This document shows positions 2,220 through 19,620 of a stretch of DNA of 32,944 nucleotides, piece by piece. Position 1 is the stretch's first letter. The number at the start of each line of letters is the position of its first letter. This DNA comes from Dehalococcoidia bacterium. Its GTDB lineage: Bacteria; Chloroflexota; Dehalococcoidia; DSTF01; WHTK01. The notes under the pieces are model-generated. The model saw nothing but the letters and a program-made list of their open reading frames with translations, was not told the origin of the DNA and ran no database searches. The stretch covers positions 1 through 32,944 of the forward strand of contig DATLYJ010000005.1 in assembly GCA_035574915.1 (NCBI GenBank), in the 5' to 3' direction. The position numbers and the translations under genes were made by a program.

Positions 2220-2249
2220 GCGGGCCCCCGCAACGCTGCGAGGGCCCGC
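2220..2249 (-). terminator. Terminator hairpin downstream of solute-binding gene 1
   Basis: The perfect 8-bp arms GCGGGCCC and GGGCCCGC enclose an inner CGCA-ACGC-TGCG stem. It begins 21 nt past the stop at 2271. No T tract follows. Confidence 0.6.
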
Positions 2250-2270
2250 GGGAAGTGTCGGACGCCGGCC

Positions 2271-4151
2271 TCAGGCGGGCTTGAAGGGCGGCTTCGTATC
2301 GTCGATCCAGACGGCCTGGCCGAAGGTCTCCGTGACGGCGTTGCCGCCGGCGTAAGTGCGCAGGAGGCCAAGGTTGGCGACGCAAGGCCAGTAAGTGCCG
2401 AAACCGAGGGCGTCGTACGGGTAGGGGCGCTGATAGCTCTTGCCCGTGATGTAACGGATGAAGTCGCCGACGAGATCCTGCTGCTTCTGCAGGTCGAACT
2501 CGCCGCGGATCTTCTCGATCATGGAGTTGGCCTGCGGGTCGCCGAGGTGCGCGTTGCGGCCGTCGGGCGCCATGCCGTGGAAGCGGGCGCCGTCCTTGTG
2601 CATGGTGGCGAAGAGCTGCGAAGCGACGGTCGGGTAGCCGCGCTCGGCGGCCCAGATGATGCCGTTGTACCCGGGCGGCGTCTTGCCGGGGTTCGCGGAC
2701 TGGGTGTAGCTGTAGTAGTAGTTTGGCAGCCAGTCGGTCTGGTAGTCCTTGGGCTGCTGCCTGACGCGAATGCCGCCTTCACTGAACATTCCGACCAGTA
2801 TCTCGGCGACACGATGATAGGTCGTGCCGTACTGGGTCCCCTGGTTGTAGTAAAGGTCGGTCTCGAAGCCGTTCGGGAAGCCGGCCGCTGTTAGCAGCTT
2901 CTTGGATTCTGCCGGGTTGAAGCGCAGGTACTTGGCGTTCGGGCCGAACTTCTTGTCATCCAGCGGGTCGACCCAGTAGCCCTCCCAGCCGGCGCCAACC
3001 ATCGTGTGGTAGCGAATAGGCACCTCCAGCCCGTCGGCGGCGAACTTCGGCCGGTTCGAGATCACGTCCGCCATGAGCTCGACGTCGATCAGCATTGAAG
3101 CTGCCTGACGGACGCGCTCGTCCTTGAAGGGCGAGTTGCCCTCGTAGCCGAAGCCTATGAACGAGGGAGTGGTGGCGAAGCTTTCGCCCTGGCGCAGCAA
3201 CAGCGCTGGTATGTCCTTCTTGGTCTGAATGACGTCATCCTGCGTAGCCTGGGTAAGCCAGATGTTGCCTGCCCGGAACTGGGCGAGGCGGGAAGCGTAC
3301 TCGCTGACGATCGGGTTTTCGACCTTGTCGTAGTAAGGCCGGCCCTTCACGTAGTAGTCCGGGTTCTTGCGCCAGACGTGGAGGGCCGAGGGGCGGTACT
3401 CCTCGAGCAGGAAGGGCCCGTAGCCGCGCACCTCACCCTTGGGGTCGAAGCCGCCGTCTGACTCGCGCGGCATTACGAAGAACAGGATCGCCGTGGTGAA
3501 AAGCTGGACGATGGACGCGTCCGGCTGCTTCATCTTGAAGACCACCGTGCGCTTGTCAGGCGCGGAGACGGACTCCACCGGCGCCTGGGGATTGGCCTCC
3601 GAATAGGCCATGTCCGGGCGGAAGGGGCTGACCTGGGCGAACTTCTTCCAGCTAAAGACGACATCATCGGCGTCGATTTCGCGGCCGCTCGTGGGCGCAC
3701 GGTTTTCCCACTTGAGGCCTTGCCGCAGCTTGAAGGTCAGTTGCAGCTTGTCGCCGCTCAGCTCGAAGGACTCCGCCAGGTCTCCCTCGGACGCGCCGGT
3801 CGCCCGGTTCGGGTACTTCGCGGCCACGAACTTCAGCATGCGGGGGTAGGTGTAGTAGGCAACAGAGCTTTGAGTGTTGAAGGACGAGCTGGAGAGGGGG
3901 TCGAAGCTGACTACGTCCGTGTTGATGACGTTCTTGAAGACGCCGCCCGGCTTTGCCCGGGCCGACGAGTCTTCCGGGGTCGACAGAAGGCCGCTACGGT
4001 CGACTGGCTGGGCGGGACGTTCCTCGCCGCCGCCGCAGCCGACGGCGCCAAGGGCCGCTACCCCGACCCCGGCGGCCATGCCTCCGGCGAGGACGCGACG
4101 CCGCGAGGCGCGCGATAGGGTGAACCGCTCCCAGTAACCCTTTTCTGCCAT
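2271..4151 (-). CDS. ABC transporter family-5 substrate-binding lipoprotein (SBP paralog 1)
   Basis: This is a 626-residue extracytoplasmic solute-binding protein of the DppA/OppA type (SBP_bac_5). The N terminus has MAEKGYWERF, then a twin-arginine motif SRRRVLAG, a hydrophobic stretch and a lipobox ending VGC followed by Gly; it should be exported folded by Tat and lipid-anchored. The mature part shows DPLSSSSFNTQS, EGDLAESFE, LKWENRAPTSGREIDADDVVFSWK and RGYGPFLLEEY, the usual family-5 landmarks. The chosen ATG has GAAGGAGCG just upstream; a longer frame reaches 4259 but would cover the promoter. Its closest relative here appears to be paralog 4 (shared SDGGFDP segment). No permease gene is adjacent. 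The ligand is unknown; peptides are the default guess. Confidence 0.88.
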   Translation of the reverse strand: MAEKGYWERFTLSRASRRRVLAGGMAAGVGVAALGAVGCGGGEERPAQPVDRSGLLSTPEDSSARAKPGGVFKNVINTDVVSFDPLSSSSFNTQSSVAYYTYPRMLKFVAAKYPNRATGASEGDLAESFELSGDKLQLTFKLRQGLKWENRAPTSGREIDADDVVFSWKKFAQVSPFRPDMAYSEANPQAPVESVSAPDKRTVVFKMKQPDASIVQLFTTAILFFVMPRESDGGFDPKGEVRGYGPFLLEEYRPSALHVWRKNPDYYVKGRPYYDKVENPIVSEYASRLAQFRAGNIWLTQATQDDVIQTKKDIPALLLRQGESFATTPSFIGFGYEGNSPFKDERVRQAASMLIDVELMADVISNRPKFAADGLEVPIRYHTMVGAGWEGYWVDPLDDKKFGPNAKYLRFNPAESKKLLTAAGFPNGFETDLYYNQGTQYGTTYHRVAEILVGMFSEGGIRVRQQPKDYQTDWLPNYYYSYTQSANPGKTPPGYNGIIWAAERGYPTVASQLFATMHKDGARFHGMAPDGRNAHLGDPQANSMIEKIRGEFDLQKQQDLVGDFIRYITGKSYQRPYPYDALGFGTYWPCVANLGLLRTYAGGNAVTETFGQAVWIDDTKPPFKPA

Positions 4152-4231
4152 CTTTCGCTCCTTCGTTCCGTTCTGTCCCGCTCGCGCGGCCGCACTCAAT
4201 TTACGCATTGACTGCGTGGATAGATGGCTCC

Positions 4232-4259
4232 AGTATCGCTCGCGACTCCAGCCTGTCAA
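4232..4259 (-). promoter_or_regulatory. Promoter of SBP paralog 1
   Basis: On the minus strand, TTGACA (4259-4254), a 16-nt spacer and GATACT (4237-4232) form a good -35/-10 pair upstream of the ATG at 4151. A small inverted repeat, ACGCA-TTGAC-TGCGT (4203-4217), follows in the leader. Confidence 0.6.
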
Positions 4260-4296
4260 TCCTCGCCTGCGCAGCCTGCAGGCGCTCTCAGAATCA

Positions 4297-4320
4297 GGGA
4301 GCCGGCTGATGCCGGCTCCC
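4297..4320 (-). terminator. Terminator hairpin downstream of SBP paralog 2
   Basis: A perfect 10-bp stem (GGGAGCCGGC / GCCGGCTCCC, loop TGAT) begins 25 nt after the stop at 4346. The T tract on the minus strand is weak. Confidence 0.65.
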
Positions 4321-4345
4321 CTGAAGAAGATTTCTCCCTTCTCGG

Positions 4346-6211
4346 TCAGGAGGGACGGTTAAGCGGCGGCTTGCTGGTATCGATCCACCAGTACGGGACG
4401 TAGAACTCGTTGGTCGGGCTGCCGCCAACCTGGGTGCGGTAGAGGCCGTAGTTCCCTATGACGGGCCAGTAGGCCTGGATGGTGAGCGAAGTCGGGACCG
4501 GCGGGATGGAGTAGACCTGCCCGGCGGCGTAACGCAGGATGTCGTGCACCATGGCGATCTGCTTTTTGGTGTCGAACTCGCGCCGGGCCGCCTCGATCAT
4601 CTGGTTGAGCTTGGGGTCGCCCTGCTTGGCGTTGCCGCCATCCGGGCGCACGCCGCGGTAGCGGCCGCCACTGGGATGGTAGTTGCCGAAGAGCTGGGCA
4701 ATCGCCGTCGGGTAGGCGAGCTCCAGCCGGTACATGAAGCCGTTGTAACCGTTCGAGCGGTCACCGGTGTAGCTGTAGTAGACCTCCGGAATGTACTCGG
4801 TCTGGTACTCCTTCGGCGTCGACTGGGCCTCGATGCCGATCTCCTTGACCATGCCGACGATGATTTCGACCGTGCGTTCGTAAGCGGCGCCGTACTGCCT
4901 GGGTGTCCAGAAGAGGGGCGCCTTGAAGCCGTTGGGGAAGCCGGCCGCGGCCATGAGCTTCTTACCCTCGGCAATGTCGAACTTCGACCACCACTTCGCG
5001 TTCGGGCCGAACTCCTTCTCGTCCTGGGGGTCGAGCCAGTACTCGCCCCAGCCGGCGCCGAGGAGGGTTTGATAACGCGTGGCGAGGTCGTAGCCCTCGC
5101 GGCGGAATTGGTCGCGGTTGGATATCACATCGGCCATCGTCTCGCGGTCGATGGCGAGAGCCACTGCCTGCCGGACGCGCAGGTCCTTGAAGGGCGAGTC
5201 GCCCTCGTAGCCCCAGGAGATGTGCCCGGGCGTCGCGGTGTACTCCGAGTCGCGTTGGACGGCGAGCTGGGGCACTTCCTTAATCACCGAGAGGACGTCT
5301 TCGGCGGTGGCGACGGGCGTCCAGATGTTGCCCGCCTTGAACTGGGCCAAGCGCTGGGCGTACTCGGTGATGTGGGGCTGCTCAATCTCGTCGAAGAAGG
5401 GTCGGCCTTTGACGTAGTAGTCCGGTATCTTCTTCCAGTGGAACAGGGCGGAGGGCGTGTACTTCTCCAGCATGAAGGGCCCGTAGCCGCGCACCTCGTT
5501 ACGAGGGTCGAACTTGTCCTCTGCCTCGCGCGGCATGACGAAGAAAATGCGGGCGCTGGCGAGTAGCTGGAGGGTCGAGGCGTCCGGTTCGTGGAGCTTG
5601 ACGATCACGGTGCGCTTGTCCGGGGCGACCATGTCCGTGACTGGCGCACCGGGGGCCGCTGGGTCGTACTTCAGGTCGCTGCGGCGCACGCCTACCTGGG
5701 AGAACTTCTTCCAGTTCCAGACGACATCTTCGGCGTCGATCTCGCGGCCGTTGGTGGGCGAACGGGCGTCCCACTTGAGGCCGGGCCTGATCTTCAAGGT
5801 GACCTGGAGCTTGTCGCCTGAGACCTCGAAGGACTCGGCCAGGTCTCCCTCAACGCTGCCGTCGGTGAACTCCGGGTACTTCGCCGGCTTGAACTTCAGA
5901 AGACGCGGATAAGTGTAGACAGAGACAGCAGTGAGGGTTGTGAATCCCTGCGAGGTATGAGGGTCGAGAGAGGCGGGGTTGGCGGAGCCGTAGACGCCCT
6001 TGAAGACACCGCCGGGTTTGGCGCGAGAGGTGGTGTCTACCGGCTCCTGGACCTTGCCCTGGGTCTTCGGCGAAGGCTCCCCGCCGCTTTCGCCGCCGCC
6101 ACAACCGGCCAGGGCGATGGTGGCCGCGCCCAGACCGGCCGTGGCGCTGCCGGCGATGGCCCGGCGCCTGGTGATGCGGACGGCACGAAATCTCTCCCAG
6201 TAGCTTTGCAT
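4346..6211 (-). CDS. ABC transporter family-5 substrate-binding lipoprotein (SBP paralog 2)
   Basis: This 621-residue family-5 solute-binding protein starts MQSYWERF, has a Tat-type TRRRAIAG motif, and then a lipobox LAGC followed by GGG. Landmarks include ASLDPHTSQGF, EGDLAESFE, NGREIDAEDVVWNWKK and RGYGPFMLEKY. It is strikingly like paralog 3 along its whole length, far more than like paralogs 1, 4 or 5, so the two look like the most recent duplicates. The ATG is fixed by AAAGGAGCG 8-9 nt upstream. The gene is a single-gene unit with its own promoter, a leader inverted repeat and a terminator. It should sit on the outer face of the cytoplasmic membrane and deliver an oligopeptide-like or other ligand to a permease encoded elsewhere. 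Confidence 0.88.
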   Translation of the reverse strand: MQSYWERFRAVRITRRRAIAGSATAGLGAATIALAGCGGGESGGEPSPKTQGKVQEPVDTTSRAKPGGVFKGVYGSANPASLDPHTSQGFTTLTAVSVYTYPRLLKFKPAKYPEFTDGSVEGDLAESFEVSGDKLQVTLKIRPGLKWDARSPTNGREIDAEDVVWNWKKFSQVGVRRSDLKYDPAAPGAPVTDMVAPDKRTVIVKLHEPDASTLQLLASARIFFVMPREAEDKFDPRNEVRGYGPFMLEKYTPSALFHWKKIPDYYVKGRPFFDEIEQPHITEYAQRLAQFKAGNIWTPVATAEDVLSVIKEVPQLAVQRDSEYTATPGHISWGYEGDSPFKDLRVRQAVALAIDRETMADVISNRDQFRREGYDLATRYQTLLGAGWGEYWLDPQDEKEFGPNAKWWSKFDIAEGKKLMAAAGFPNGFKAPLFWTPRQYGAAYERTVEIIVGMVKEIGIEAQSTPKEYQTEYIPEVYYSYTGDRSNGYNGFMYRLELAYPTAIAQLFGNYHPSGGRYRGVRPDGGNAKQGDPKLNQMIEAARREFDTKKQIAMVHDILRYAAGQVYSIPPVPTSLTIQAYWPVIGNYGLYRTQVGGSPTNEFYVPYWWIDTSKPPLNRPS

Positions 6212-6240
6212 CGTTCCGCGCTCCTTTGCAAGACGTTATC

Positions 6241-6264
6241 TATGAGGCGATAGGACGCCTCATA
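6241..6264. promoter_or_regulatory. Perfect inverted repeat in the leader of SBP paralog 2
   Basis: TATGAGGCG and CGCCTCATA form perfect 9-bp arms around a 6-nt spacer (ATAGGA). The element lies between the -10 region and the Shine-Dalgarno, so it could be a regulator operator or an mRNA stem-loop. I see no equally good copy before the other four paralogs. Confidence 0.5.
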
Positions 6265-6275
6265 AGATGCAACAG

Positions 6276-6303
6276 AATTCAACTGTGCGGAGCGCGCTGT
6301 CAA
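6276..6303 (-). promoter_or_regulatory. Promoter of SBP paralog 2
   Basis: On the minus strand a perfect TTGACA (6303-6298) is followed after 16 nt by TGAATT, a weak -10. The position relative to the gene matches the other paralogs. Confidence 0.5.
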
Positions 6304-6313
6304 TACCCCGACC

Positions 6314-6350
6314 GGCAAAAAGAAGAGGGGCCGGTGGCTACCGGCCCCTC
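6314..6350 (-). terminator. Intrinsic terminator downstream of SBP paralog 3
   Basis: A perfect 11-bp stem (GAGGGGCCGGT / ACCGGCCCCTC, loop GGCT) is followed on the minus strand by TTCTTTTTG, a real T tract. It begins 22 nt past the stop at 6373. Confidence 0.85.
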
Positions 6351-6372
6351 CTGCGGGCGTCCCGGCGAAAGG

Positions 6373-8241
6373 TCAAGCCGGCCGGTTGAGCGGCGGCTTG
6401 GTGGTGTCGATCCACCAGTAGGGCACGTAGGACTCGTTCGTAGGGCTGCCGCCGGTCTGGGTGCGGTAGAGGCCGTAGTTCGCGATCACCGGCCAGTAGG
6501 CGACGATGCCGAGGTTCGCCGGTCGCGGCGGGATGGAGTAGACCTGGCCGGCGGCGTAGCGCAGGATGTCGTGCACCATAGCGATCTGCTTCTTGGTGTC
6601 GAATTCCTTCCGCGCGGCCTCGATCATCTGGTTGAGTTTGGGATCGCCCTGCTTGGCGTTGCCGCCGTCCGGGCGCACGCCGCGGTAGCGGCCGCCGCTG
6701 GGGTGGTAGTTCCCGAAGAGCTGTGCCACGGCCGTAGGGTAGGCAAGCTCGGCGCGGTAGATCATGCCGTTGAAGCCGCGCGTGCTGTCCCCGGTGTAGC
6801 TGTAGTAGATTTCCGGGATGTACTCGGTCTGGTACTCCTTCGGTGAGGACTGCGCCTCGATGCCGACTTCCTTGAACATGCCGATGAGGATGTCGACCTC
6901 GCGCTCGTAGGCGGCGCCGTACTGGCGCGGCGTCCAGTAGAGGTTTGTCTTAAACCCATTCGGGAAGCCCGCCGCGGACAGGAGTTTCTTCGCCTCGGAT
7001 GGGTTGTACTCGCTCCACCACTTCCCGTTCGGGCCGAACTCCTTGGAGTCCTGGGGGTCGAGCCAGTAGTCGCCCCAGCCGGCGCCGAGCAGCGTCTGAT
7101 ACTTCGTGACGGGCTCGAAGCCCTCGGCCTTGAACTTTGGCCTGTCGTAGGTGACGTCCGCGATCGCCTCGCGGTCGATGGCGAGCGCGACGGCCTGGCG
7201 CACGCGCAGGTCCTTGAACGGTGAGTCGCCCTCGTAACCCCAGGAGACGTGAGTCGGCGTCGGGTTGAGGTCCGCTTCCTGCTGGACTGCGAGCTGGGGC
7301 ACTTCCTTGATCACCGAGAGCACGTCCTGGGCGGTCGAGACCGGCGTCCAGATGTTGCCGGCCTTGAACTGCGCCAGGCGCTGCGCGTACTCGGTTACGT
7401 GAGGCTGCTCGATCTCGTCGAAGAACGGCCGCCCCTTGCGGTAGTAGTCCGGGATCTTCTTCCAGTGGAAGAGGGCGGAAGGAGTGTACTTCTCCAGCGT
7501 GAACGGCCCGTAGCCGCGGACCTCGTTGCGGGAGTCGAACTTGTCCTCCGCCTCGCGCGGCACGACGAAGAAGATGCGGGCGCTGGCCAGCAGCTGAAGG
7601 GCGGAGGAGTCGGGCTCCTTCAGCTTCACGATGACCGTGCGCTTGTCGGGGGCGATCATGTCGGTCACCGGGGCGCCCGGCGCGGCCGGGTCGTACATCA
7701 GGTCGGAGCGGCGGACGCCGACCTGGGAGAACTTCTTCCAGTTCCAGACGACATCTTCGGCGTCGATCTCGCGGCCGTTTGTGGGGGAGCGGGCGTCCCA
7801 CTTCATGCCCGGACGGATCTTCAGGGTCACCTGGAGCTTGTCGCCCGAGACCTCGAAGGACTCGGCGAGGTCTCCTTCGACGCTCCCGTCGGTGAAGTCG
7901 GGATACTTCGCCGGCTTGAAGGTGAGCAAGCGAGGGTACACATATACGGCGACTGCCGTGAGGGTGGTGAACCCCTGCGAGGTATGTGGGTCGAGAGAGG
8001 CCGGGTTGGCTGAGATGTAGACGCTCTTGAGGACGCCGCCAGGCTTCGCCTGTGACGTCGTATCGACCGGGATTTGCACCTTGCCCTGTGTCTGGCCCCG
8101 GCCGCCACCGCTGTCATCGCCTCCGCCTCCGCAACCGGCCACCGCCAGCGCGATTCCCCCGGCGCCGAGGGCCGCCGCTCCTGCCAGCACCCTTCGCCGG
8201 GCTGTGCGGGCGGCAGCGAAACGCTCCCAATAACCTTGCAT
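6373..8241 (-). CDS. ABC transporter family-5 substrate-binding lipoprotein (SBP paralog 3)
   Basis: This 622-residue family-5 solute-binding protein begins MQGYWERFAAARTARRRVLAG (YWER motif plus Tat arginines) and continues through a hydrophobic stretch to the lipobox VAGC and a Gly-rich linker. The mature protein is nearly superimposable on paralog 2 (ASLDPHTSQGF, EGDLAESFE, RGYGPFTLEKY, SGGRYRGVRPDGGNAKQGD). The frame is open up to 8316, but the ATG at 8241 has AAAGGAG at the right distance and the upstream frame runs into the promoter area. Same role as its neighbours: a lipid-anchored binding protein feeding an unlinked ABC permease. Differences from paralog 2 are concentrated in the middle region and near the ligand-binding loops, which would fit changed ligand preference. 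Confidence 0.88.
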   Translation of the reverse strand: MQGYWERFAAARTARRRVLAGAAALGAGGIALAVAGCGGGGDDSGGGRGQTQGKVQIPVDTTSQAKPGGVLKSVYISANPASLDPHTSQGFTTLTAVAVYVYPRLLTFKPAKYPDFTDGSVEGDLAESFEVSGDKLQVTLKIRPGMKWDARSPTNGREIDAEDVVWNWKKFSQVGVRRSDLMYDPAAPGAPVTDMIAPDKRTVIVKLKEPDSSALQLLASARIFFVVPREAEDKFDSRNEVRGYGPFTLEKYTPSALFHWKKIPDYYRKGRPFFDEIEQPHVTEYAQRLAQFKAGNIWTPVSTAQDVLSVIKEVPQLAVQQEADLNPTPTHVSWGYEGDSPFKDLRVRQAVALAIDREAIADVTYDRPKFKAEGFEPVTKYQTLLGAGWGDYWLDPQDSKEFGPNGKWWSEYNPSEAKKLLSAAGFPNGFKTNLYWTPRQYGAAYEREVDILIGMFKEVGIEAQSSPKEYQTEYIPEIYYSYTGDSTRGFNGMIYRAELAYPTAVAQLFGNYHPSGGRYRGVRPDGGNAKQGDPKLNQMIEAARKEFDTKKQIAMVHDILRYAAGQVYSIPPRPANLGIVAYWPVIANYGLYRTQTGGSPTNESYVPYWWIDTTKPPLNRPA

Positions 8242-8300
8242 ATACCTTTGTGCTCCTTTTAGGGCCGGTTGTTGTCGCGTGCCGGCCATTATTGCTGCGG

Positions 8301-8329
8301 ATAGTCGCCTCCACACGCAGGCGTGTCAA
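8301..8329 (-). promoter_or_regulatory. Promoter of SBP paralog 3
   Basis: On the minus strand TTGACA (8329-8324), a 17-nt spacer and GACTAT (8306-8301). The -10 is a partial match only. A GGCCGG...CCGGCC inverted repeat (8263-8287) lies in the leader. Confidence 0.5.
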
Positions 8330-8345
8330 GAGCCTCGAAATCTGG

Positions 8346-8373
8346 ACGAGGGCCTGCGAAAGCAGGCCCTCGT
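8346..8373 (-). terminator. Terminator hairpin downstream of SBP paralog 4
   Basis: A perfect 12-bp stem (ACGAGGGCCTGC / GCAGGCCCTCGT) with a GAAA loop begins 27 nt after the stop at 8401. No long T tract follows. Confidence 0.75.
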
Positions 8374-8400
8374 GTCAGAAGCCGTCGCCGGCGGGAGACT

Positions 8401-10281
8401 TCAGGAGGCCTTCACGGGCGGCTGGGTCTGGTCCAGCCACCAGTGGATCGTAGACTCGACGGCCGCATTACCGCCGGGGTAGGTCACATAGGCCCCGATG
8501 TTCCGGATCACCGGCCAGTAGACGCCGAAGTTCTTCGCGCCCACCGGCCGCGGCACCTGGTAGGCCTTGCCCGTCATGTAGCGGATGAAGTCCTTCACCA
8601 GGGCCTGCTGCTTCTCGATGTCGAACTCGCGCTGGATCTGCTCGATCATCGCGTTGACCTTCGGGTCCCCGAGGTGGGCGTTGTTGCCGGTGTCGGTCAG
8701 GCCCTGGAAGAGCGAGCCGTCCTTGTGGAAGGTGCCGAACAGCTGTGACGCGACCGTCGGGTAACTCTTGTGGGCAGCGTAGACCAGGCCGTTGAACCCC
8801 TTGACCCTGCCGGACTCGTACGCGGCTCGGACGTAACCGAGGTAGTAGTTGTCGTAGTAGGTCTGGTAAGGGATGGGGTTCTCGCGCGAGCGTATGCCGC
8901 CGTCGCGGAGGTTGCCCGCGAACACGTCCTTGATGAGGTGATAGGTGGCGCCGTAGTTGTTGTCCGCGTTGTAGATGAGGTCGACGTCGACGCCGTTGGC
9001 GTAGCCCGCGGCGCTCATCAGCTTCTTCGCCTCGGCGATGTCGAGCTTCAGGTACTTGTGGTTCGGGCCGAACTCCTTCTCGTTGTAGGGGTCGATCCAG
9101 TAGCCGGCCCAGCCGGCGCCGACGATGGTGTGGTAGGCGATCGGGATGTCGAGGCCCTCCCGGGCGAGGCCGTCCTTGTTGTGGACGACGTTCGCGAACG
9201 CCTCCCGGTCGATCAGCAACGATACGGCCTGGCGCATGCGCTCGTCCTTGAAGACGGAGTTGCCTTCGTAGCCGAAGCGGATGTGCGAGGAGACGCCTGT
9301 CGGGAAGCTGTCGTCCTGGTAGACGAGGCCCTGGGGGACGTCCTTGATCGTCTGAGGGATGTCGGTCTGGAGTAGTCCGTGCACGTCCGTCCAGATGTTG
9401 CCGGCTTTGAACTGCGCCAGGCGCGCCGCGTATTCAGGGAGGATCGGCTCTTCGCGCGCGTCGTAGAAGGGGCGGTTCTTGACGTAATAGTCCGGGTTCT
9501 TCTTCCAGCGGAAGTACGCGGACGGACGGTACTCGTCGAGGATCCAGGGCCCGTGGCCGCGGACCTCCGCCCTGGGGTCGAAACCGCCATCGGACTCGCG
9601 CGGCATGACGAAGAAGTGGGCGGCGGACGTCAGGAGCTGGAGCAGCGAAGAGTCCGGCTGCTTGAGCTTGAAGATGATCGTGTTGCGGTCCGGCGACGAG
9701 ATGGACTCGATGGGCGCGCCGGCGCTCTTCTCCGCGTCGTAGGCCAGGTCCTGCGCGGCGGCGTTGCGGGAGGTGAACTTCCGCCAGCTGAAGAGGACGT
9801 CCTCCGCGTCGATGAGGCGGCCGTTTGTGGGGGCGCGAGCGTCCCATTTGAGGTCGCGCTTCAGCTTCAGGGTGAGCTGGAGCTTGTCGCCGCTGATCTC
9901 GAAAGAGTCCGCGAGGTCACCCTCGGACTCGCCCGATGGCTGCTCCGGATACTTTGCCGCCTTGAATTTGAGCAGACGCGGATAAGCGAGGGTCGCCACG
10001 GACAGGGTCTGTGCGTTGTTCGTCGAGAGTACGTCGAAGCCCGTGGGCACGTCGGCCGTACGGACGGTCTTCAGGGTGCCGCCGGTCTTTGCCTTGGCGG
10101 TCTCGTCCTGCGGCCGCTGAATGAGGCCGCTCTGCTCGCCCAGCTTCGCGCCTCCGTCCCCTCCTCCGCCGCAGCCCACCATCGATAGGGCAGCGACGCC
10201 TGTTCCGGCCGCCGCTGCTGTGGCGATGGCCCTCCGCCTCGAAAGTCGAGAGGAGGTGATCCGCTCCCAGTAACCTGCCAT
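8401..10281 (-). CDS. ABC transporter family-5 substrate-binding lipoprotein (SBP paralog 4)
   Basis: This 626-residue family-5 solute-binding protein begins MAGYWERITSSR, followed by Tat motif SRRRAIAT, a hydrophobic core and the lipobox MVGC plus Gly. Landmarks are EGDLADSFE, NGRLIDAEDVLFSWRK, SDGGFDP and RGHGPWILDEY. It groups by eye with paralog 1 rather than with the 2/3 pair. The start is the ATG with CAAAGGAGC upstream; the frame extends to 10353 but that overlaps the -35 box. The gene is the first of the four minus-strand copies, and the divergent TetR gene begins 156 nt away. That makes it the copy whose promoter is best placed for control by that repressor. Confidence 0.88.
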   Translation of the reverse strand: MAGYWERITSSRLSRRRAIATAAAAGTGVAALSMVGCGGGGDGGAKLGEQSGLIQRPQDETAKAKTGGTLKTVRTADVPTGFDVLSTNNAQTLSVATLAYPRLLKFKAAKYPEQPSGESEGDLADSFEISGDKLQLTLKLKRDLKWDARAPTNGRLIDAEDVLFSWRKFTSRNAAAQDLAYDAEKSAGAPIESISSPDRNTIIFKLKQPDSSLLQLLTSAAHFFVMPRESDGGFDPRAEVRGHGPWILDEYRPSAYFRWKKNPDYYVKNRPFYDAREEPILPEYAARLAQFKAGNIWTDVHGLLQTDIPQTIKDVPQGLVYQDDSFPTGVSSHIRFGYEGNSVFKDERMRQAVSLLIDREAFANVVHNKDGLAREGLDIPIAYHTIVGAGWAGYWIDPYNEKEFGPNHKYLKLDIAEAKKLMSAAGYANGVDVDLIYNADNNYGATYHLIKDVFAGNLRDGGIRSRENPIPYQTYYDNYYLGYVRAAYESGRVKGFNGLVYAAHKSYPTVASQLFGTFHKDGSLFQGLTDTGNNAHLGDPKVNAMIEQIQREFDIEKQQALVKDFIRYMTGKAYQVPRPVGAKNFGVYWPVIRNIGAYVTYPGGNAAVESTIHWWLDQTQPPVKAS

Positions 10282-10325
10282 CTGTTGCTCCTTTGAAGTG
10301 CAGGTGGACTTTGAAGATTCCCAAA

Positions 10326-10353
10326 GGTGTACTTTCCTGGCCTTACCTGTCAA
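10326..10353 (-). promoter_or_regulatory. Promoter of SBP paralog 4
   Basis: On the minus strand a perfect TTGACA (10353-10348) is followed after 16 nt by TACACC, a poor -10. The leader holds a direct repeat CTTTGAAG (two copies about 10 nt apart), one of which overlaps the Shine-Dalgarno. Confidence 0.45.
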
Positions 10354-10395
10354 GCGCTCAGGCTCAGAGTGGGCGCCGGCGGGGTCGGCACGGTC

Positions 10396-10401
10396 TATAA
10401 T
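10396..10401 (+). promoter_or_regulatory. -10 element of the TetR gene
   Basis: A perfect TATAAT lies 35 nt before the GTG start at 10437. No convincing -35 box is seen at the usual distance. The intergenic space is shared with the divergent promoter of SBP paralog 4. Confidence 0.6.
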
Positions 10402-10436
10402 TCCGCGCTGTAAAGTCTGCGAGTCGGGGGCTGCCG

Positions 10437-11045
10437 GTGAGTGAACGGGGCGAGACCGCTTCTTCGAGAGAGCGCCGGCGCCAGGTCCTGCGCGCCGTAT
10501 CGGAACTCATTGCCCGCCACGGCATCGATGGGATGTCGATGCGGCAGGTGGCGGAAGCGGCGGGCATGAGCACCGGGACGATCAACTACCATTTCAAGAA
10601 CAAGCGCGGCCTGATCATGGCGGCGATGGACCACGTGTACTCGGTGCCGCAGGACTGGTCGCCATACGCGGACCTGCCGCCGCTGGAGCAGTTGCGAGTG
10701 CGCGCCGGGATCTTCATCCTCCGTTCGGAAGCCCGGCAGCGCTGGGGCCGGTTCTGGCTCGAGTACGCCGCCCAGGCCGGGCGCGACACTGAACTGCTGG
10801 AGAGCCACAAGGCGCGCCACCAGCGACGGCGGGAGGTCTTCGCCCAGACGATCGCCCTGGGACAGAAGGCGGGAGAGGTCCGGCGGGACATCGACCCCTT
10901 CGGCGCGGCGGAGGCCCTGCTGGCGCTGATCGACGGGGTCACCACGCAGCAGATCGCCTTCGGGCTCTCTCCCGAGCGCGCCGAGGAGATCCTCTCCGGC
11001 TTCATCCGCCATCTCGGCGCGCACTCCGCGTACCCGTTCGACTAA
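10437..11045 (+). CDS. TetR/AcrR-family transcriptional regulator
   Basis: This 202-residue protein has an N-terminal HTH of the TetR family. The segment RRQVLRAVSELIARHGIDGMSM is the first helix pair, and MRQVAEAAGMSTGTINYHF followed by KNKRGL is the recognition helix and its flank (residues about 35-60). The C-terminal part is all-helical with FWLEYAAQAG and ALLALIDGVTTQQIA, like BetI-type ligand-binding domains. It starts with GTG. It lies between four solute-binding genes on one side and a fifth on the other, divergent from paralog 4 and in the same direction as paralog 5, so it may regulate either or itself. The inducer is unknown. Confidence 0.88.
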   Translation: MSERGETASSRERRRQVLRAVSELIARHGIDGMSMRQVAEAAGMSTGTINYHFKNKRGLIMAAMDHVYSVPQDWSPYADLPPLEQLRVRAGIFILRSEARQRWGRFWLEYAAQAGRDTELLESHKARHQRRREVFAQTIALGQKAGEVRRDIDPFGAAEALLALIDGVTTQQIAFGLSPERAEEILSGFIRHLGAHSAYPFD

Positions 11046-11060
11046 CTAACGCGACTCCCG

Positions 11061-11089
11061 TTGACATCGCCCGAAGCCGGTGCTACGTT
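11061..11089 (+). promoter_or_regulatory. Promoter of SBP paralog 5
   Basis: A perfect TTGACA (11061-11066), a 17-nt spacer and TACGTT (11084-11089). Transcription would start about 175 nt before the ATG, giving an unusually long leader. Confidence 0.55.
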
Positions 11090-11104
11090 TCCGCCAACCC
11101 AGAA

Positions 11105-11212
11105 TCGCACGTGCGTGCGAGCCAATGATTGACGCGACGAAGCTTCTCCAGCCCCCTCCCGCCTCCAGGAGGCCGCCCGCATGGCAGGCCCTCCCGAAGC
11201 TGGACACCAGCT
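11105..11212 (+). promoter_or_regulatory. Structured long leader of SBP paralog 5
   Basis: Between the promoter and the gene are three inverted repeats: TCGCAC-GTGC-GTGCGA (11105-11120), GCCTCC-A-GGAGGC (11161-11173) and AGCTGG-ACA-CCAGCT (11198-11212). The first lies at the predicted transcription start and could be an operator. The others could form stem-loops in the mRNA. No known riboswitch consensus was recognised. Confidence 0.35.
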
Positions 11213-11270
11213 AATCTCCGGTCCCCGCAGCCTGCACCACTCGTAGACCACAGGTGAAGGGAGCAGCCCC

Positions 11271-13067
11271 ATGTCCTCATCGAATTACTGGGTTCGGATC
11301 CGGGACCAGAGGATACCCCGCCGTAGTGCTCTCGCCGGGGCGTCGACCGTAGGGCTTGGCGCCGCTGCCCTGGCGTTGGCCGGCTGCGGCGGCGGCGGAG
11401 AGGGGGGCGCGGGGTCCAAAGCGTCCGATTCGAGGCTCGGCAAGCCTGAGGACACCACTCGCCAGGCCGTACAGGGCGGCACCTTCCAGGACTACATCAC
11501 GACCGAGGTCCAGACGTTCGACCTGGCGCGCACCAGCAACTTCACTGCCTTCAACACGGTTGGGTGGCGCATATACGGCCGACTGCTGCGCTACAACTCC
11601 GGTCCGTTAGGGGAGGCGATTACCTCGAAGATCGAGGGGGACCTCGCGGAGTCCTTCGAGGTCACGCAGGACGGCCTCACCTGGACCTTCAAGTTGCGGC
11701 CCAACGTGAAAATGCAGCCAGTGGCGCCGCTGAACGGCCGTCCGCTGGACATCGAGGACGTGAGGCTGAGCTGGGAGCGCTTCATCGAGGGCAGCCCCCG
11801 CCGCGTCCGGTTCGACATGGTGGACAGCGTCTCCTTCCCGGACGCCCGCACCATGGTCTTCAAGAACAAGTTCCCTTATGCGCCTTTCGGGCCCCTGATC
11901 GCGGACACAAGCTCTTTCTGGATCATGCCCAAGGAAGTGGCGAAGGGCGAGGTGGACTACCGCCCCGTTGGCGCCGGCACCGGGCCTTTCATCCTCGAGA
12001 ACTACCAGCGCGGCGCCTTCCTGCGTTGGAAGCGAAACCCGAACTACTTCGACGCCCCGCGGCCGTACGTCGAGACGGTGGAGATGCCGATCATCACGGA
12101 ATACGCCCAGCGGGCAGCGCAGTTCCGCGCGAAGAACATCGACGTCTTTACGCCGCTGGAGCCGGACGTCCTGAGCATGTTCAACGACCTGCCAGACGCC
12201 ACCGCCTGGCAGGGCGACTTCACGCTTTCGCAGAACTACGTGCTGTTCCCGCGCAACAGCGCCCCCTTCGGTGGCCAGCACGGCCAGCCAGGCGGCGACG
12301 TGCGCCTGCGGCGCGCCCTCTCCATGGCCTTCGACCGCGACACCTTCATCGACGTCTTCCGAAACGTTACGCCCATCCGCAACGCCGGGTTCAGCGTCGA
12401 CGTGAAGTGGGACAACCTGCTGTCGCCCGGGTGGACTTTCTACCTCGACCCGCAGGACTCGAAAGAGATGGGATACCCGGAGAAGGCGCCAGGCAAGTGG
12501 TACAAATACGACGTCGCCGAAGCCAAGAAGCTGCTCGCCGCGGCTGGCTTCCCCAACGGCATCGACTCCGAGATCCACTACTCGACCATCTGGACGGGCG
12601 ACTTCACGCGCCGGATGGAGGTCACGCGCGACATGTGGAGGGAGGCCGGCTTCCGGTTCGACAAGCTCGTGGGGCACGAGTTTCAGACGGACTACCTGCC
12701 CAACGTGATCACGAAGGGCGACTTCAATGGCGTGCGCCTCGGCCCGTTTACGGAGTACACGGAGGAGGATCAGTACTGGGTGTCCGCCTTCAGGCCGGGC
12801 ACGGACCGCAACCCCGCGGGCTGGGACGACCCCAAAGTCCTGGACCTGATCGACAAGCAGCGGCGCGAGTTCGACGTCGAGAAACGCAAGCGCCTCAACT
12901 GGGACCTGCAGGTCTACCTCTCGGACAACATGTACAACATCCCCTGGGGCGGCCAGGCGACGAGCGGCTTCACGTTTACGCAGCCCTGGGTGAAAAACTA
13001 CCGGGTGTACCGCCAGGTCCCGAACTCGGCGACCTACCTGTGGCTGGACCATACGAAGAGGTCGTAG
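11271..13067 (+). CDS. ABC transporter family-5 substrate-binding lipoprotein (SBP paralog 5)
   Basis: This 598-residue family-5 solute-binding protein is the most divergent of the five. The N terminus has NYWVRIRDQR, a Tat motif of the form PRRSALAG, a hydrophobic stretch and the lipobox LAGC followed by GGGG. Further landmarks are EGDLAESFE, NGRPLDIEDVRLSWERF, GTGPFILENY and RRALSMAFDRDTF. It keeps the YWxR signature but lacks the third Arg of the RRR seen in the other four. The ATG has GAAGGGAG upstream. It is transcribed on the opposite strand from the other copies and follows the TetR gene, from which it has its own promoter and a long structured leader. It is expected to be a lipid-anchored binding protein; no permease is nearby. 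Confidence 0.88.
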   Translation: MSSSNYWVRIRDQRIPRRSALAGASTVGLGAAALALAGCGGGGEGGAGSKASDSRLGKPEDTTRQAVQGGTFQDYITTEVQTFDLARTSNFTAFNTVGWRIYGRLLRYNSGPLGEAITSKIEGDLAESFEVTQDGLTWTFKLRPNVKMQPVAPLNGRPLDIEDVRLSWERFIEGSPRRVRFDMVDSVSFPDARTMVFKNKFPYAPFGPLIADTSSFWIMPKEVAKGEVDYRPVGAGTGPFILENYQRGAFLRWKRNPNYFDAPRPYVETVEMPIITEYAQRAAQFRAKNIDVFTPLEPDVLSMFNDLPDATAWQGDFTLSQNYVLFPRNSAPFGGQHGQPGGDVRLRRALSMAFDRDTFIDVFRNVTPIRNAGFSVDVKWDNLLSPGWTFYLDPQDSKEMGYPEKAPGKWYKYDVAEAKKLLAAAGFPNGIDSEIHYSTIWTGDFTRRMEVTRDMWREAGFRFDKLVGHEFQTDYLPNVITKGDFNGVRLGPFTEYTEEDQYWVSAFRPGTDRNPAGWDDPKVLDLIDKQRREFDVEKRKRLNWDLQVYLSDNMYNIPWGGQATSGFTFTQPWVKNYRVYRQVPNSATYLWLDHTKRS

Positions 13068-13095
13068 CAGCTTCCGCTGGTTCCCTGAAGACAGA

Positions 13096-13128
13096 CAACG
13101 GAGGCCGGCATGGCGCCGGCCTCCGTTG
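13096..13128. terminator. Bidirectional hairpin between SBP paralog 5 and VKOR
   Basis: The perfect 14-bp arms CAACGGAGGCCGGC and GCCGGCCTCCGTTG enclose a 5-nt loop. It lies 28 nt after the plus-strand stop and 17 nt beyond the minus-strand stop of the VKOR gene. The minus side continues into TCTGTCTTC. Confidence 0.75.
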
Positions 13129-16558: not shown

Positions 16559-17758
16559 TCAGGCCGGCCTCGGGCTAAGGATGATCGACGCGTGGTAGTC
16601 GAGTATCCCGCCGTTGCCGGTGACCAGAACAAGGTCGTTCTTCGCCACCTGGCGCTGGCCGCCCCCTCCTCGCGCCTGGATGACGCCTTCGGACATGGGT
16701 GTCATGCCCCACATGTAGAAGGCGCTAAGTTCGCCGCCGCCGGTGTTCGTTGGCAGGCTGCCGCCGGGGCCGAGCTTGCCGTCCTCAACGAAGGCGCCGC
16801 CTTCTCCCTTGGCGCAGAAGCCGTAGTCTTCGAGCGTCACGAGCACGGTGTAGGTGTAGCAGTCGTAAAGTTCGCAGATGTCTATGTCCTTCGCCGTGAT
16901 GCCCAGTTGTCCGTACAGGGTCTCGCGCGCGATCACCGCTCCCGTCGACACTTCGTGCGGGTCGCCGGCGCTGCGGGAGTCGCCCGGGTGGCCCTGGGCC
17001 ATCGCCAGCACGTACGCGGGCGAAGCCTTCGCGTCCGCCGCTCGCTCGACGGAGGTCACGATGACGGCGACGGCGCCGTTCGACACGAGGCAGCAGTCGA
17101 GCAGGTGCAGCGGCTCGACGATGAAGCGCGAGGCCTGGTGGTCCTCGATCGTGATCGGCGTGCGCATCTGCGCGCGGTCATTCATGACCGCCCAGTCGCG
17201 CTCCGCGACCGCTATCGCCCCGAACTGCTCGCTCGTCGTGCCGAACTCGGCCATGTGCCGCCGCGCCGCCATGGCGTATCCGATGTTTACACCGAAGTAA
17301 CCATAGTGGGCGTTGAGGCCCGCCCAGCCCGGCGGCCCTGCCGGCCTTCCGTTCCCGCTGGCCGCGGCCGCCCGTGCGGCGCCACCGTAGGCAGCGCCCG
17401 AAGAAGCGCCCGGGGCCGCCAGCGGCGTGTCCGCGAACACGCAGGCCACGTAGTTCGCCATGCCGTTCTGCACCGCCATCGAGGCGTACTGCACCATCTG
17501 GCAGGCCGTAGACCCGGCCGCGTTCATGTGGTTCAGGAGCCGCAGCCCCTTGAAGCCGCCCGCGTTCTGTAGGCCCAGCCCGATGCTGTTGCTGATCCCG
17601 GCGTTGATCAGGAGGCCGTCCAGGTCGTCCTTCTTGAGCCCTGCGTCCTCGAGGGCGAGGTTGATCGCCTCGATCGCGAGGCTTGTCCCCGAGCGCCCGA
17701 AGACCTTCCCCATCTCTGTAATCCCGAGACCTACAATCGCGGCCTTTGCCTGCGCCAT
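16559..17758 (-). CDS. Thiolase-superfamily protein resembling Ltp2-type retro-aldolases (no nucleophilic Cys)
   Basis: This 399-residue thiolase-fold protein has the N-terminal half (IVGLGITEMGKV, LALEDAGLKKDDLDGLL, GSTACQMVQYASMAVQNG) and the C-terminal half (CELYDCYTYTVLVTLEDYG, NTGGGELSAFYMWGM, LVTGNGG) of the SCP-x/lipid-transfer group. In true thiolases the nucleophile is the Cys of CxSGS; here the aligned residues are Asn79-Ala-Ala-Gly-Ser, so thiolysis is unlikely. Tyr298 (LYDCY) and Tyr348 (AFYMW) stand 50 residues apart, matching my memory of the catalytic Tyr294 and Tyr344 of actinobacterial Ltp2. Such enzymes split beta-hydroxyacyl-CoA by retro-aldol cleavage together with a DUF35 protein, which is encoded just downstream. 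AGGAG lies 8 nt before the ATG. Side-chain degradation of a steroid-like or branched lipid is an inference. Confidence 0.8.
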   Translation of the reverse strand: MAQAKAAIVGLGITEMGKVFGRSGTSLAIEAINLALEDAGLKKDDLDGLLINAGISNSIGLGLQNAGGFKGLRLLNHMNAAGSTACQMVQYASMAVQNGMANYVACVFADTPLAAPGASSGAAYGGAARAAAASGNGRPAGPPGWAGLNAHYGYFGVNIGYAMAARRHMAEFGTTSEQFGAIAVAERDWAVMNDRAQMRTPITIEDHQASRFIVEPLHLLDCCLVSNGAVAVIVTSVERAADAKASPAYVLAMAQGHPGDSRSAGDPHEVSTGAVIARETLYGQLGITAKDIDICELYDCYTYTVLVTLEDYGFCAKGEGGAFVEDGKLGPGGSLPTNTGGGELSAFYMWGMTPMSEGVIQARGGGGQRQVAKNDLVLVTGNGGILDYHASIILSPRPA

Positions 17759-17797
17759 GCGGATGCTCCTGCGGCTGGAGTTGCGGGCTTACGGATT

Positions 17798-18543
17798 CTA
17801 CAGCGGCGCGGGTGCTTCGAAAATCGCCGCGATGAGCTTATAGCAGTCACCGTTGAAGGGCTCGCCCAGCGAGACCGTGACCAGCAGCCGCCTTTCGTCC
17901 AGCCCCAATTCCCGGGGCCGGTACTCTCCCTCCCGCCTGCCCGCGATCTCGAGCTCCCAGACGGGGTCGGTGACCGAGAGGTAGTACCCGGAGCCGCCGT
18001 GGCGGAAACGGAGCCTGGCCTGAGGGTTGCCGGAGTAGCTCCGTGTGGACACGAAGACGGCTTCTCGCGGACGTACCAGGGCCAGGGATGCCTCCAGGGG
18101 ACTCGCCGCCGCCGCGCTGTACGGGATGCGGTCGCCCGTGGTGCCGAGGATCAGTGGACGGGCGTCGATAGCCGCCGCCAAAAGGCCTGCGACCGTTTCG
18201 GCCCGGCGCGCGACACGCTGCCATGGCCGGGCGGAGACCACGTGGTTTTCCGGCTGGTGGGGCTCGGGCCTCGCCCGGTGAAGCCAGATACGGAGCACGT
18301 CCAGCACTCGCGGCTCGGAGCCATCGGGAAGGCGGTAGTGCCTGGGGAACAGGGTGCCGTCGTCCTGGGGCGACACCGGCCGCAGCCAGCGCCCGCTCTC
18401 GAGGTCGAGCCCGGCGACGCACCGGCCGCCGTGCTTCTTGGAGAAAGCCAGGCACAGCAGGTCGACGCTGTCCGCCCGGGGCCGCCTCGTCCGCCCGCTT
18501 CGGTGCCCGGACTACCTCCGAAAAGCCGCCGGAGGAATGACAC
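17798..18543 (-). CDS. Dual-OB-fold (DuOB) protein with an apparent -1 frameshift near its N terminus
   Basis: The main frame reads DLLCLAFSKKHGGRCVAG, then GRWLRPVS, LLDV-like and QPENHVV segments and a second OB-like half ending VSLGEPFNGDCYKLIAAIF. I recognise this as the dual OB-domain family, predicted to bind nucleic acid. This frame has no usable start: its first ATG/GTG (18376) lies after the first conserved block, and a TAG lies upstream. A second frame starts with GTG at 18543, two bases after the stop of the DUF488 gene, and reads MSFLRRLFGGSPG, a normal-looking N terminus. The two join if one C is added to the CCCC run (18478-18481 on the plus strand). So the gene is either frameshifted, in error, or recoded. 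It is the third gene of the DUF488 operon. Confidence 0.75.
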
Positions 18544-18545
18544 TG

Positions 18546-18983
18546 CTAGAGGTGCTCGATGCTCACGTCACGCCATTGGGCCTGAAGGTACTCCGCCGCC
18601 AGCCGCCTGTGACACCTGTCTGCCTTGGGCTCACTGCAGAGCAGCGCGATCCTACGGGCGAAGTCCGACGGACGCAACTCCTTCGCGACCGCGCGTTCTA
18701 CGAGAAGGTCCTGGTAGCGCCGGGCGTAGGTTTCCCACTCGATCTCCTTCGAGCGATAAGCCTTGAGCAGGTCCTCCGCCGGCGCCAGCAGCAGTTCATG
18801 CCGGTAGCCGATGCCGGCGATGGAGGCCAGCAGATAGGGGAGGTCGGACTTCTTGGTGAAGCCGGTCAGCTGGGAGACGTTGTTCAGCCGGACGTCGACG
18901 AGTTGCTCGACCCGGGCGCGCTTCAGTGACTCGAAGAACTGCTCGGCCGTCTTGCCGGCAAAACCGATCGTGAAGATCTCCAC
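18546..18983 (-). CDS. DUF488 family protein B
   Basis: This 145-residue DUF488 protein shows the family landmarks: TIGFAGK at residues 5-11 (the usual TIGHS with His replaced), DVRLNN at 30-35, and the terminal Cys116...Cys124-His125-Arg126 motif (CSEPKADRCHRR). The family is of unknown biochemical function; the conserved Asp-Val-Arg and Cys/His residues suggest an enzyme. It begins at a GTG with GAGGAG 5-6 nt upstream; that ribosome site and the first 20 codons lie inside the end of the preceding DUF488 gene (61-nt overlap). The dual-OB gene follows after two bases. The TIGF-type and TIGHS-type proteins are clearly different subfamilies, so this is a heterologous pair and not a recent duplication. 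Confidence 0.85.
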   Translation of the reverse strand: MEIFTIGFAGKTAEQFFESLKRARVEQLVDVRLNNVSQLTGFTKKSDLPYLLASIAGIGYRHELLLAPAEDLLKAYRSKEIEWETYARRYQDLLVERAVAKELRPSDFARRIALLCSEPKADRCHRRLAAEYLQAQWRDVSIEHL

Positions 18984-19531
18984 AGGCTCTCCTCGCCGTC
19001 GTCGAAGAAGCCGCGCTGCGCCAGACTGGAGACCTTCTGTGCGCCCGCGATCTCCGCTTCGTCCTGGACGCGGCCGTCGCCGCGGATATGGTGGATGGCA
19101 TACCCGTCGCCGGCAAGGACGCGGCCGATCAGCAGCCTGCGGTGGCAGTCAGTCGGGTCCTCTTCCGAGCACATGATCGCGACGCGCTCGTGCTGCTCCA
19201 CGAGCAGCTTCAAGCGCGACAAGCCCAGCGCGAAGAACTCGCTCTGTGCCACCTTGTAGTACAGGACGTGCCCGTGGACGTCGTAGTATTCGTGCCCCCC
19301 GGGCCGGCCACCGAGCGTGTCGCCGGCGAAGACGTAGGCGATGCCGGCATGCTCGAGCCGCTGGGCCAGGGCAGCGTGGTTGAACTGGGGCGCGAACTGC
19401 GAGTAGGGCTGTGAGCGCACGTCTATCAGGGCGCTGATGCGGCTCAACGCCAGCAGCCTCAGGAAGCGGTCCAGGCTCTGGTTCGAATGCCCGATGGTGT
19501 AGACAACCGCCGAGGCCGAGCGCGCGCACAT
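18923..19531 (-). CDS. DUF488 family protein A
   Basis: About 202 residues. The family motifs are TIGHS at 12-16, DVRSQPYS at 37-44 and Cys121...Cys129-His130-Arg131 (CSEEDPTDCHRR). Between them is a Tyr-rich segment (HEYYDVHGHVLYYKV) typical of the larger DUF488 subgroup. The last 20 or so residues, rich in Ser and Arg, lie over the start of the next gene in another frame and may be read-through after loss of an original stop. The frame opens at 19612 (GTG), but the ATG at 19531 is preferred: a -10 element ends 9 nt upstream, so the mRNA is probably leaderless, and the family motif starts 11 residues later. It is the first gene of the DUF488-DUF488-dual-OB operon. Confidence 0.85.
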   Translation of the reverse strand: MCARSASAVVYTIGHSNQSLDRFLRLLALSRISALIDVRSQPYSQFAPQFNHAALAQRLEHAGIAYVFAGDTLGGRPGGHEYYDVHGHVLYYKVAQSEFFALGLSRLKLLVEQHERVAIMCSEEDPTDCHRRLLIGRVLAGDGYAIHHIRGDGRVQDEAEIAGAQKVSSLAQRGFFDDGEESLWRSSRSVLPARRPSSSSSH

Positions 19532-19534
19532 GTT

Positions 19535-19548
19535 CGAACAAATATTCG
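19535..19548. promoter_or_regulatory. LexA-like (SOS) box candidate overlapping the DUF488 promoter
   Basis: CGAACAAATATTCG matches the Gram-positive LexA consensus CGAACRNRYGTTYG at all fixed positions but one (A for G at the tenth base). It covers the -10 element of the DUF488 operon and lies just before the ATG, where a repressor would block transcription. Next to it is the perfect palindrome TGTTCGAACA (19531-19540). The LexA box of this lineage is not known to me, so the call is tentative. Confidence 0.4.
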
Positions 19549-19570
19549 CGCCGCCCGTCCGCCTTGTCAA
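19541..19570 (-). promoter_or_regulatory. Promoter of the DUF488 operon (leaderless)
   Basis: On the minus strand TTGACA (19570-19565), an 18-nt spacer and AATATT (19546-19541). The ATG at 19531 would lie at or within a few bases of the transcript start; there is no Shine-Dalgarno. Confidence 0.55.
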
Positions 19571-19606: not shown

Positions 19607-19620
19607 CCGCACAGACTCAC

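What the first reader, a model, noticed from the sequence alone, without database searches (positions are those of the whole stretch)
2220..13128. Array of five solute-binding lipoprotein paralogs without any transporter partner
Five family-5 binding proteins, each with its own TTGACA promoter and its own terminator hairpin 21-28 nt after the stop, sit together with only a TetR gene among them. No DppB/C/D/F genes are present. The copies form a near-identical pair (2 and 3), a second pair (1 and 4) and an outlier (5). This looks like expansion of ligand receptors feeding one shared permease, or sensing rather than transport.
Basis: partly seen in the sequence, partly recalled or inferred. Interest (0 to 1): 0.6.

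Follow-up and report, generated by a model that had tools for sequence, protein, structure and literature searches.

The report
Many uptake receptors, few shared pumps
An uncultured Chloroflexota bacterium carries five neighbouring genes for surface 'catcher' proteins of one nutrient-import family but no pump beside them; across its genome such catchers far outnumber pumps, which suggests many interchangeable receptors feeding a few shared pumps, an arrangement known on a smaller scale in other bacteria.

Summary
The five family-5 solute-binding lipoproteins are real (2271-13067), each with its own exact TTGACA and its own 11-14 bp hairpin, and no permease or ATPase gene lies on the contig, which is the whole window. 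The pair 2/3 is 82% identical, not near-identical; the 1/4 pairing is not recovered by the tree. Genome-wide (96% complete, Dehalococcoidia) there are 33 such receptors, 12 Dpp-type permease pairs and one OppD/OppF ATPase pair plus one single ATPase; 22 of 33 receptors have no permease within 4 kb (17 securely, 5 near contig ends). Window copies 1-4 sit in an 11-member orphan radiation whose sister is a permease-linked receptor. A receptor-less permease pair of the same clade is conserved in the family relative (40 receptors, 4 permease pairs). Of the two DppA residues that hold peptide ends, the Asp is absent from all five and the Arg is kept only in copies 2 and 3, so they are probably not dipeptide receptors. 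Best reading: interchangeable receptors for diverse small organics feeding shared permeases and ATPases, a scaled-up version of what is known in Borrelia and Pseudomonas. Unexpected: an invariant Tyr-Trp upstream of the Tat motif in 27 receptors and in no other protein found.

The parts
2271..4151 (-). copy 1: Tat lipoprotein, SBP_bac_5 receptor (626 aa)
   Evidence: PF00496 E 5.5e-56; YWERF..SRRR Tat signal and lipobox
4254..4259 (-). TTGACA of copy 1 (followed by GATACT at 16 nt)
2220..2249 (-). 13 bp hairpin after copy 1, no T-run
4346..6211 (-). copy 2: Tat lipoprotein, SBP_bac_5 receptor (621 aa)
   Evidence: PF00496 E 4.4e-53; model pLDDT 92.5; family-5 fold
6298..6303 (-). TTGACA of copy 2
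4296..4321 (-). 11 bp hairpin after copy 2
6373..8241 (-). copy 3: Tat lipoprotein, SBP_bac_5 receptor (622 aa), 82.3% identical to copy 2
8324..8329 (-). TTGACA of copy 3
6323..6352 (-). 13 bp hairpin with T-run after copy 3
8401..10281 (-). copy 4: Tat lipoprotein, SBP_bac_5 receptor (626 aa)
   Evidence: PF00496 E 4.1e-44
10348..10353 (-). TTGACA of copy 4
8346..8373 (-). 12 bp hairpin after copy 4
10437..11045 (+). TetR-family regulator, BetI-type C-terminal domain, divergent from copy 4
   Evidence: PF13977 E 3.6e-16, PF00440 E 7.7e-14
11061..11066 (+). TTGACA upstream of copy 5
11271..13067 (+). copy 5: Tat lipoprotein, SBP_bac_5 receptor (598 aa), outlier
   Evidence: PF00496 E 1.4e-54; 34-36% identical to copies 1-4
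13096..13128 (+). 14 bp hairpin after copy 5

Best explanation
The five genes are separately transcribed, Tat-exported, membrane-anchored solute receptors of the DppA/OppA (family-5) fold. They belong to a genome-wide set of receptors that has outgrown its transporters. Each receptor probably catches a different small organic compound (probably not a dipeptide) and hands it to one of a few shared DppB/C-type permease pairs: most likely the C67:17364/18429 pair or the receptor-less C100 pair for copies 1-4, and the C91 pair for copy 5. One unlinked OppD/OppF ATPase pair (C148, perhaps with the single ATPase on C107) would energise all the permeases. Shown: gene anatomy, counts, unlinked organisation, tree position, loss of the peptide-anchoring Asp, purifying selection on copies 2/3. 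Inferred: actual docking of orphans on these permeases, ligand identities, ATPase sharing, and one transcript per gene.
For: 33 receptors against 12 OppB-type permeases; 22 of 33 receptors more than 4 kb from any permease hit, 17 of them not near a contig end. Joint tree of 148 proteins: copies 1-4 lie among 11 orphans (clade support 0.968) whose sister is the permease-linked C67:15391 receptor (12-member clade support 1.0); copy 5 and the C88 orphan group (0.958) with the permease-linked C91 receptor and 21 receptors of the relative G001. A receptor-less permease pair on C100 is orthologous to a receptor-less pair in G001 and sister to the C67 pair; the C91 pair is orthologous to the G001 C38 pair. 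Only 3 oligo_HPY ATPases in the genome and no PF00005 ATPase next to any of the 12 pairs. Expansion is confined to this family in its order: 33 and 48 PF00496 matches, against 4-17 in the other 16 of 18 genomes. The Asp that holds the peptide amino end (E. coli DppA D436; PMC12136057, passages) is kept in 3 of 33 receptors and 0 of 5 window copies; the loop ending there is among the most variable in the 11 orphans (identity 0.28 against a mean of 0.51; 3.4% of windows as low). dN/dS about 0.18 for copies 2/3. Individual TTGACA and hairpins, 5 of 5.
Against: No docking, binding or expression data. Some orphan-permease links could lie across contig breaks (183 contigs; 5 of 22 orphans are near contig ends). 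Deep nodes of the permease tree are weak (0.04-0.6). In the relative G001 only one clear Opp-type ATPase was found and no pair, so the single-pair picture is not confirmed there; that genome is 93% complete. The residue D436 that the orphans lack also contacts the permease scoop loop in E. coli, so docking must differ in detail. The variable loops were chosen from two known residues, not from a full pocket map.
Confidence: 0.6

Rival explanations
1. The orphans are sensors: ligand-bound lipoproteins signal to kinases, chemoreceptors or regulators rather than deliver cargo.
For: Transcription regulators adjoin several copies (TetR in the window; LuxR, two TetR and one LacI among 25 neighbours of 15 orphans). 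A PAS-type histidine kinase lies about 4 kb from the receptor-less C100 permeases. A sensing role is proposed for orphan receptors of another family in PMC5994714 (passages read).
Against: None of the 25 neighbours examined is a sensor kinase or chemoreceptor. The regulators found are cytoplasmic one-component types, which fits control of receptor expression as well. A receptor-less permease pair is conserved.
Confidence: 0.15
2. The receptors are largely redundant copies kept for dosage (more of the same receptor) and share one ligand.
For: Copies 2 and 3 are 82% identical.
Against: Most others are 34-60% identical, and the loops at the two known ligand-contact sites are among the more variable parts of the orphan clade (3.4% and 6.5% of windows as low). 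Separate promoter-like elements and separate genomic neighbourhoods.
Confidence: 0.12
3. Cognate permeases exist one-to-one but are missing from the assembly or too divergent for the profile.
For: 183 contigs; the window is a complete contig with only 2.2 kb to the left of copy 1; five orphans are near contig ends.
Against: The genome is 96.4% complete. 11 of the 12 permease pairs already have their own receptor. The better-assembled relative (70 contigs) has 40 usable receptors and 4 permease pairs.
Confidence: 0.08

Closest known systems
Borrelia burgdorferi Opp system (five OppA, two permease heterodimers, one OppDF pair; PMC5736914, passages read)
   Same: Same transporter family; several independently regulated receptors, fewer permeases, one ATPase pair; three receptors in tandem.
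   Different: Here 33 receptors (22 orphan), 12 permease pairs, Tat-type signals, loss of the peptide-anchoring Asp; no experiment.
Pseudomonas aeruginosa DppA1-A5 with DppBCDF (PMC4206461, abstract and section 5 read)
   Same: Five DppA-type receptors with a close pair (83%), a looser pair (59%) and one distant copy, serving one permease by genetic test.
   Different: There permease and ATPases form one operon near four of the receptors, and the ligands are di/tripeptides; here nothing is linked.
Orphan TTT receptors ('Bugs') of Bordetella and Rhodoplanes (PMC5994714, passages read)
   Same: Lineage-specific expansion of orphan receptors with few membrane partners, in tandem arrays.
   Different: Unrelated receptor and transporter family (TTT); here ABC family-5 receptors.
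Listeria CtaP with its two associated permeases (PMC10269559, passages read)
   Same: Family-5 receptor, among the Foldseek matches (5isu), with two associated permeases. That no ATPase gene adjoins them is from recall, not from the passages read.
   Different: A single receptor; no expansion.

Membership tests
Family-5 solute-binding proteins (PF00496) | Profile match above the curated cut-off | tested here: met
   all five above 32.4 bits; 151-191 bits for the four scanned
Family-5 solute-binding proteins (PF00496) | Two-lobed DppA/OppA fold | tested here: met
   model of copy 2 pLDDT 92.5; best Foldseek match E 9.4e-31, TM 0.68/0.80; copies 1, 3, 4, 5 not folded
Tat lipoproteins | Twin arginine, hydrophobic stretch, lipobox Cys | tested here: met
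   R15, R16 and C37 invariant in 25 aligned signals; export itself not tested
DppA dipeptide receptors | Arg and Asp that bind the peptide ends (R383, D436 in E. coli DppA) | tested here: not met
   Asp in 0 of 5, Arg only in copies 2 and 3; NCBIfam DppA model 47 bits for copy 2 against cut-off 1005
Multi-receptor/shared-permease Opp systems (Borrelia, Pseudomonas type) | More receptors than permeases in the genome | tested here: met
   33 versus 12; relative 40 versus 4
Multi-receptor/shared-permease Opp systems (Borrelia, Pseudomonas type) | One ATPase pair serving several permeases | tested here: inconclusive
   genomic arrangement fits in G000; no pair found in G001
Multi-receptor/shared-permease Opp systems (Borrelia, Pseudomonas type) | Receptors shown to deliver ligand to the shared permease | not testable with these tools
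   needs uptake or ATPase assays
TTT/Bug orphan receptors | TctC-type receptor family | tested here: not met
   only SBP_bac_5 found in the four receptors scanned

The most novel reading that the evidence does not exclude
This Dehalococcoidia family runs a three-tier plug-in import network: dozens of non-peptide receptors, a few permease pairs (one pair with no receptor of its own) and one ATPase pair. Its receptors carry an extra code in the cleaved Tat signal (Tyr-Trp ten residues before the twin arginine) that routes only this receptor class, for example to a dedicated chaperone or assembly site.
Probability: 0.25. Interest if true: 0.65.

Novelty: new variant of a known kind. Interest (0 to 1): 0.42.

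Why it matters
It shows how an uncultured lineage could broaden its diet cheaply by adding receptors, not whole transporters. Annotation by neighbouring genes would wrongly leave these receptors without a transporter. The conserved motif in a signal peptide predicted to be cleaved is a concrete, testable oddity.

Tried and rejected
Peptide-receptor annotation: rejected as a default, because the peptide-anchoring Asp is missing. One-to-one permeases: rejected by counts. Strong tie to CoA-transferase family III genes: 5 of 22 orphans and 8 of 33 receptors lie within 5 kb of one, against a background of 9.9%; nominal P 0.06 and 0.013, treated as suggestive only. Coupling-helix test of ATPase sharing: the EAA region is the most conserved stretch of the 12 OppB-type permeases (0.75 against 0.39), but that is usual for this family (recalled) and so not diagnostic; a first version had four permeases in the wrong frame and was redone. 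The search of genome contigs with one window protein found nothing; an alignment was needed. Padloc scan: nothing for the two receptors and the TetR given. Literature searches listed no report of a family-5 receptor expansion in Chloroflexota; only open-licence PMC text is held, and two of them returned nothing.

Cautions: the permease and ATPase profiles used were built from rows that included a few wrong-frame or antisense ORFs (4 of 24 permeases, 3 of 6 ATPase rows); the key absence of ATPases in the own genome rests on PF00005, which is independent of them. Gene neighbours were called by a simple ORF score; two short neighbours (97 and 112 aa) were not scanned. Receptors shorter than 450 aa or below 200 bits were dropped before the joint tree, as were the four named loci that duplicate G001 and loci L086-L106. 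An earlier count said 48 loci without ATPase; the recount gives 49.
Full report
WHAT IS THERE. The window is a complete contig (C5) of a 3.25 Mb, 183-contig, 96.4% complete genome (contig length 32944). Its nearest named relatives by these receptors are Dehalococcoidia, Tepidiforma among them. Five family-5 solute-binding proteins lie at 2271-13067, four on the minus strand and one on the plus strand, with a TetR gene between. All five start with a Tat lipoprotein signal. Exact TTGACA precedes all five (72-210 nt upstream) and an 11-14 bp hairpin follows all five (20-28 nt after the stop); the chance level is 0.017 TTGACA per 250 nt and 4.4% of random 70-mers with a stem of 9 bp or more. A stricter promoter scan finds a -10 only for copy 1, and a T-run only after copy 3. 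So separate transcription units are likely but not shown. Over all 22 orphans of the genome, 11 have an exact TTGACA within 250 nt and 13 a hairpin.

RELATIONSHIPS. Pairwise identities: 2/3 82.3%; 1/4 56.5%; 1 with 2 or 3 about 52%; 4 with 2 or 3 about 50%; copy 5 34-36% to all. Copies 2/3 have dN 0.12 and dS 0.70, so they are not recent duplicates and are under purifying selection. In the 148-protein tree copies 1-4 belong to 11 orphans (0.968), with the permease-linked C67:15391 receptor as sister (1.0); copy 4 joins 2/3 (0.946); copy 1 has no firm partner (0.39); copy 5 pairs with C88 (1.0). The array therefore mixes local duplicates (2/3) with members that have close kin elsewhere.

GENOME CONTEXT. 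There are 33 PF00496 receptors, 12 OppB-type permeases (PF19300), matching 12 adjacent permease pairs, and 3 oligo_HPY ATPases, two of them adjacent on C148 and closest to OppD and OppF models, below those models' cut-offs for a firm name. By distance, 22 receptors have no permease hit within 4 kb and 11 do; 5 of the 22 are within 1.5 kb of a contig end. No PF00005 ATPase adjoins any of the 12 pairs; the nearest on those contigs are about 5-12 kb away and low-scoring. In the wider set, 0 of 49 loci with permeases from this genome, its relative, other Chloroflexota and a few other phyla had an ATPase within 4 kb, and 8 of 8 proteobacterial loci did; 6 of the 49 had less than 2.3 kb downstream, and a few overlap. 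Unlinked ATPases are thus usual in this part of the tree and not special to this genome.

RELATIVES. Of 18 genomes of the order, the two of this family have 33 and 48 PF00496 matches and the other 16 have 4-17; OppB-type permeases number 12, 4 and 1-6. The relative G001 gave 40 receptors of usable length, 34 orphan, 3 near a contig end and 3 near permeases, one of these convergent, with 4 permease pairs. Its receptors form their own radiations (10 and 21 members, both 1.0), so much of the expansion happened separately in the two genomes. Arrays of three to four orphans also occur in other Chloroflexota MAGs (L065, L066, L072, L077). One permease pair without a receptor beside it (C100) is orthologous to a receptor-less pair in G001 (0.905 and 0.992) and sister to the C67 pair; the C91 pair is orthologous to the G001 C38 pair (1.0). 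Receptor-less permeases beside permease-less receptors are what sharing predicts. Against the simple picture, G001 showed only one clear Opp-type ATPase.

LIGANDS. The predicted structure of copy 2 is confident (pLDDT 92.5) and matches family-5 receptors of peptides, opines, glutathione and nickel. In E. coli DppA, R383 and D436 hold the two ends of the dipeptide and also contact the DppB scoop loop (PMC12136057, passages). The Asp is kept in 3 of 33 receptors here, none in the window; the Arg in copies 2 and 3 only. Within the 11 orphans the seven positions ending at the Asp site have identity 0.28 against a mean of 0.51; the four ending at the Arg site 0.26 (3.4% and 6.5% of windows as low). 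This points to diverse, probably non-peptide ligands. Of 25 neighbours of 15 of the 17 non-window orphans, 6 are acyl-CoA enzymes, 4 other catabolic enzymes, 4 transcription regulators, 8 other, 3 unmatched. Closeness to CoA-transferase genes is only suggestive.

UNEXPECTED. All 25 aligned signal peptides share Tyr-Trp ten residues before the twin arginine. A profile of them, searched over the whole genome, puts exactly the 27 receptors with the motif first (E 6.9e-5 or better, two of them not in the training set); the next match (E 1.2e-4) and all later ones, 27 in all, begin at model position 6 or later, so none contains the pair. A tryptophan 5-16 residues before the twin arginine is found in 26 of 27 receptors with a recognised Tat signal here, 35 of 37 in G001 and 56 of 67 in the other loci. 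The signal is predicted to be cleaved at the lipobox, so the motif should act before or during export. I recall no described function; the literature was not searched for it.

JUDGEMENT. It is a known design (Borrelia, PMC5736914; Pseudomonas, PMC4206461) on a larger scale and probably with other ligands. Sensing remains possible.

Noticed in passing
window 4131-4136, 6197-6202, 8227-8232, 10267-10272 (minus strand) and 11286-11291 (plus strand): Invariant Tyr-Trp ten residues before the Tat twin arginine in all five copies and in 27 receptors of the genome, in no other protein found by profile search.
   Followed up: partly
L026:2327-4471: Permease pair with no receptor in the 14 kb examined, beside an M16 peptidase and about 4 kb from a PAS-type histidine kinase; the orthologous pair in G001 is also receptor-less.
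   Followed up: partly
L024:4154-10938: The OppD/OppF-like ATPase pair follows two CoA-transferase family III genes and an intervening BrkB-type gene; the single ATPase on C107 is also 2-3 kb from CoA-transferase genes.
   Followed up: no
L065, L066, L072, L077: Other Chloroflexota MAGs carry tandem arrays of three to four orphan family-5 receptors with no permease in the stretch.
   Followed up: partly
window 18923-19612: Protein matching the PADLOC candidate-defence model PDC-M45B at E 1.4e-53; likely a DUF488-type protein by recall, not by a call.
   Followed up: no
window 16559-21217: Thiolase-like and MaoC/FAS1-dehydratase-like genes on the same contig.
   Followed up: no
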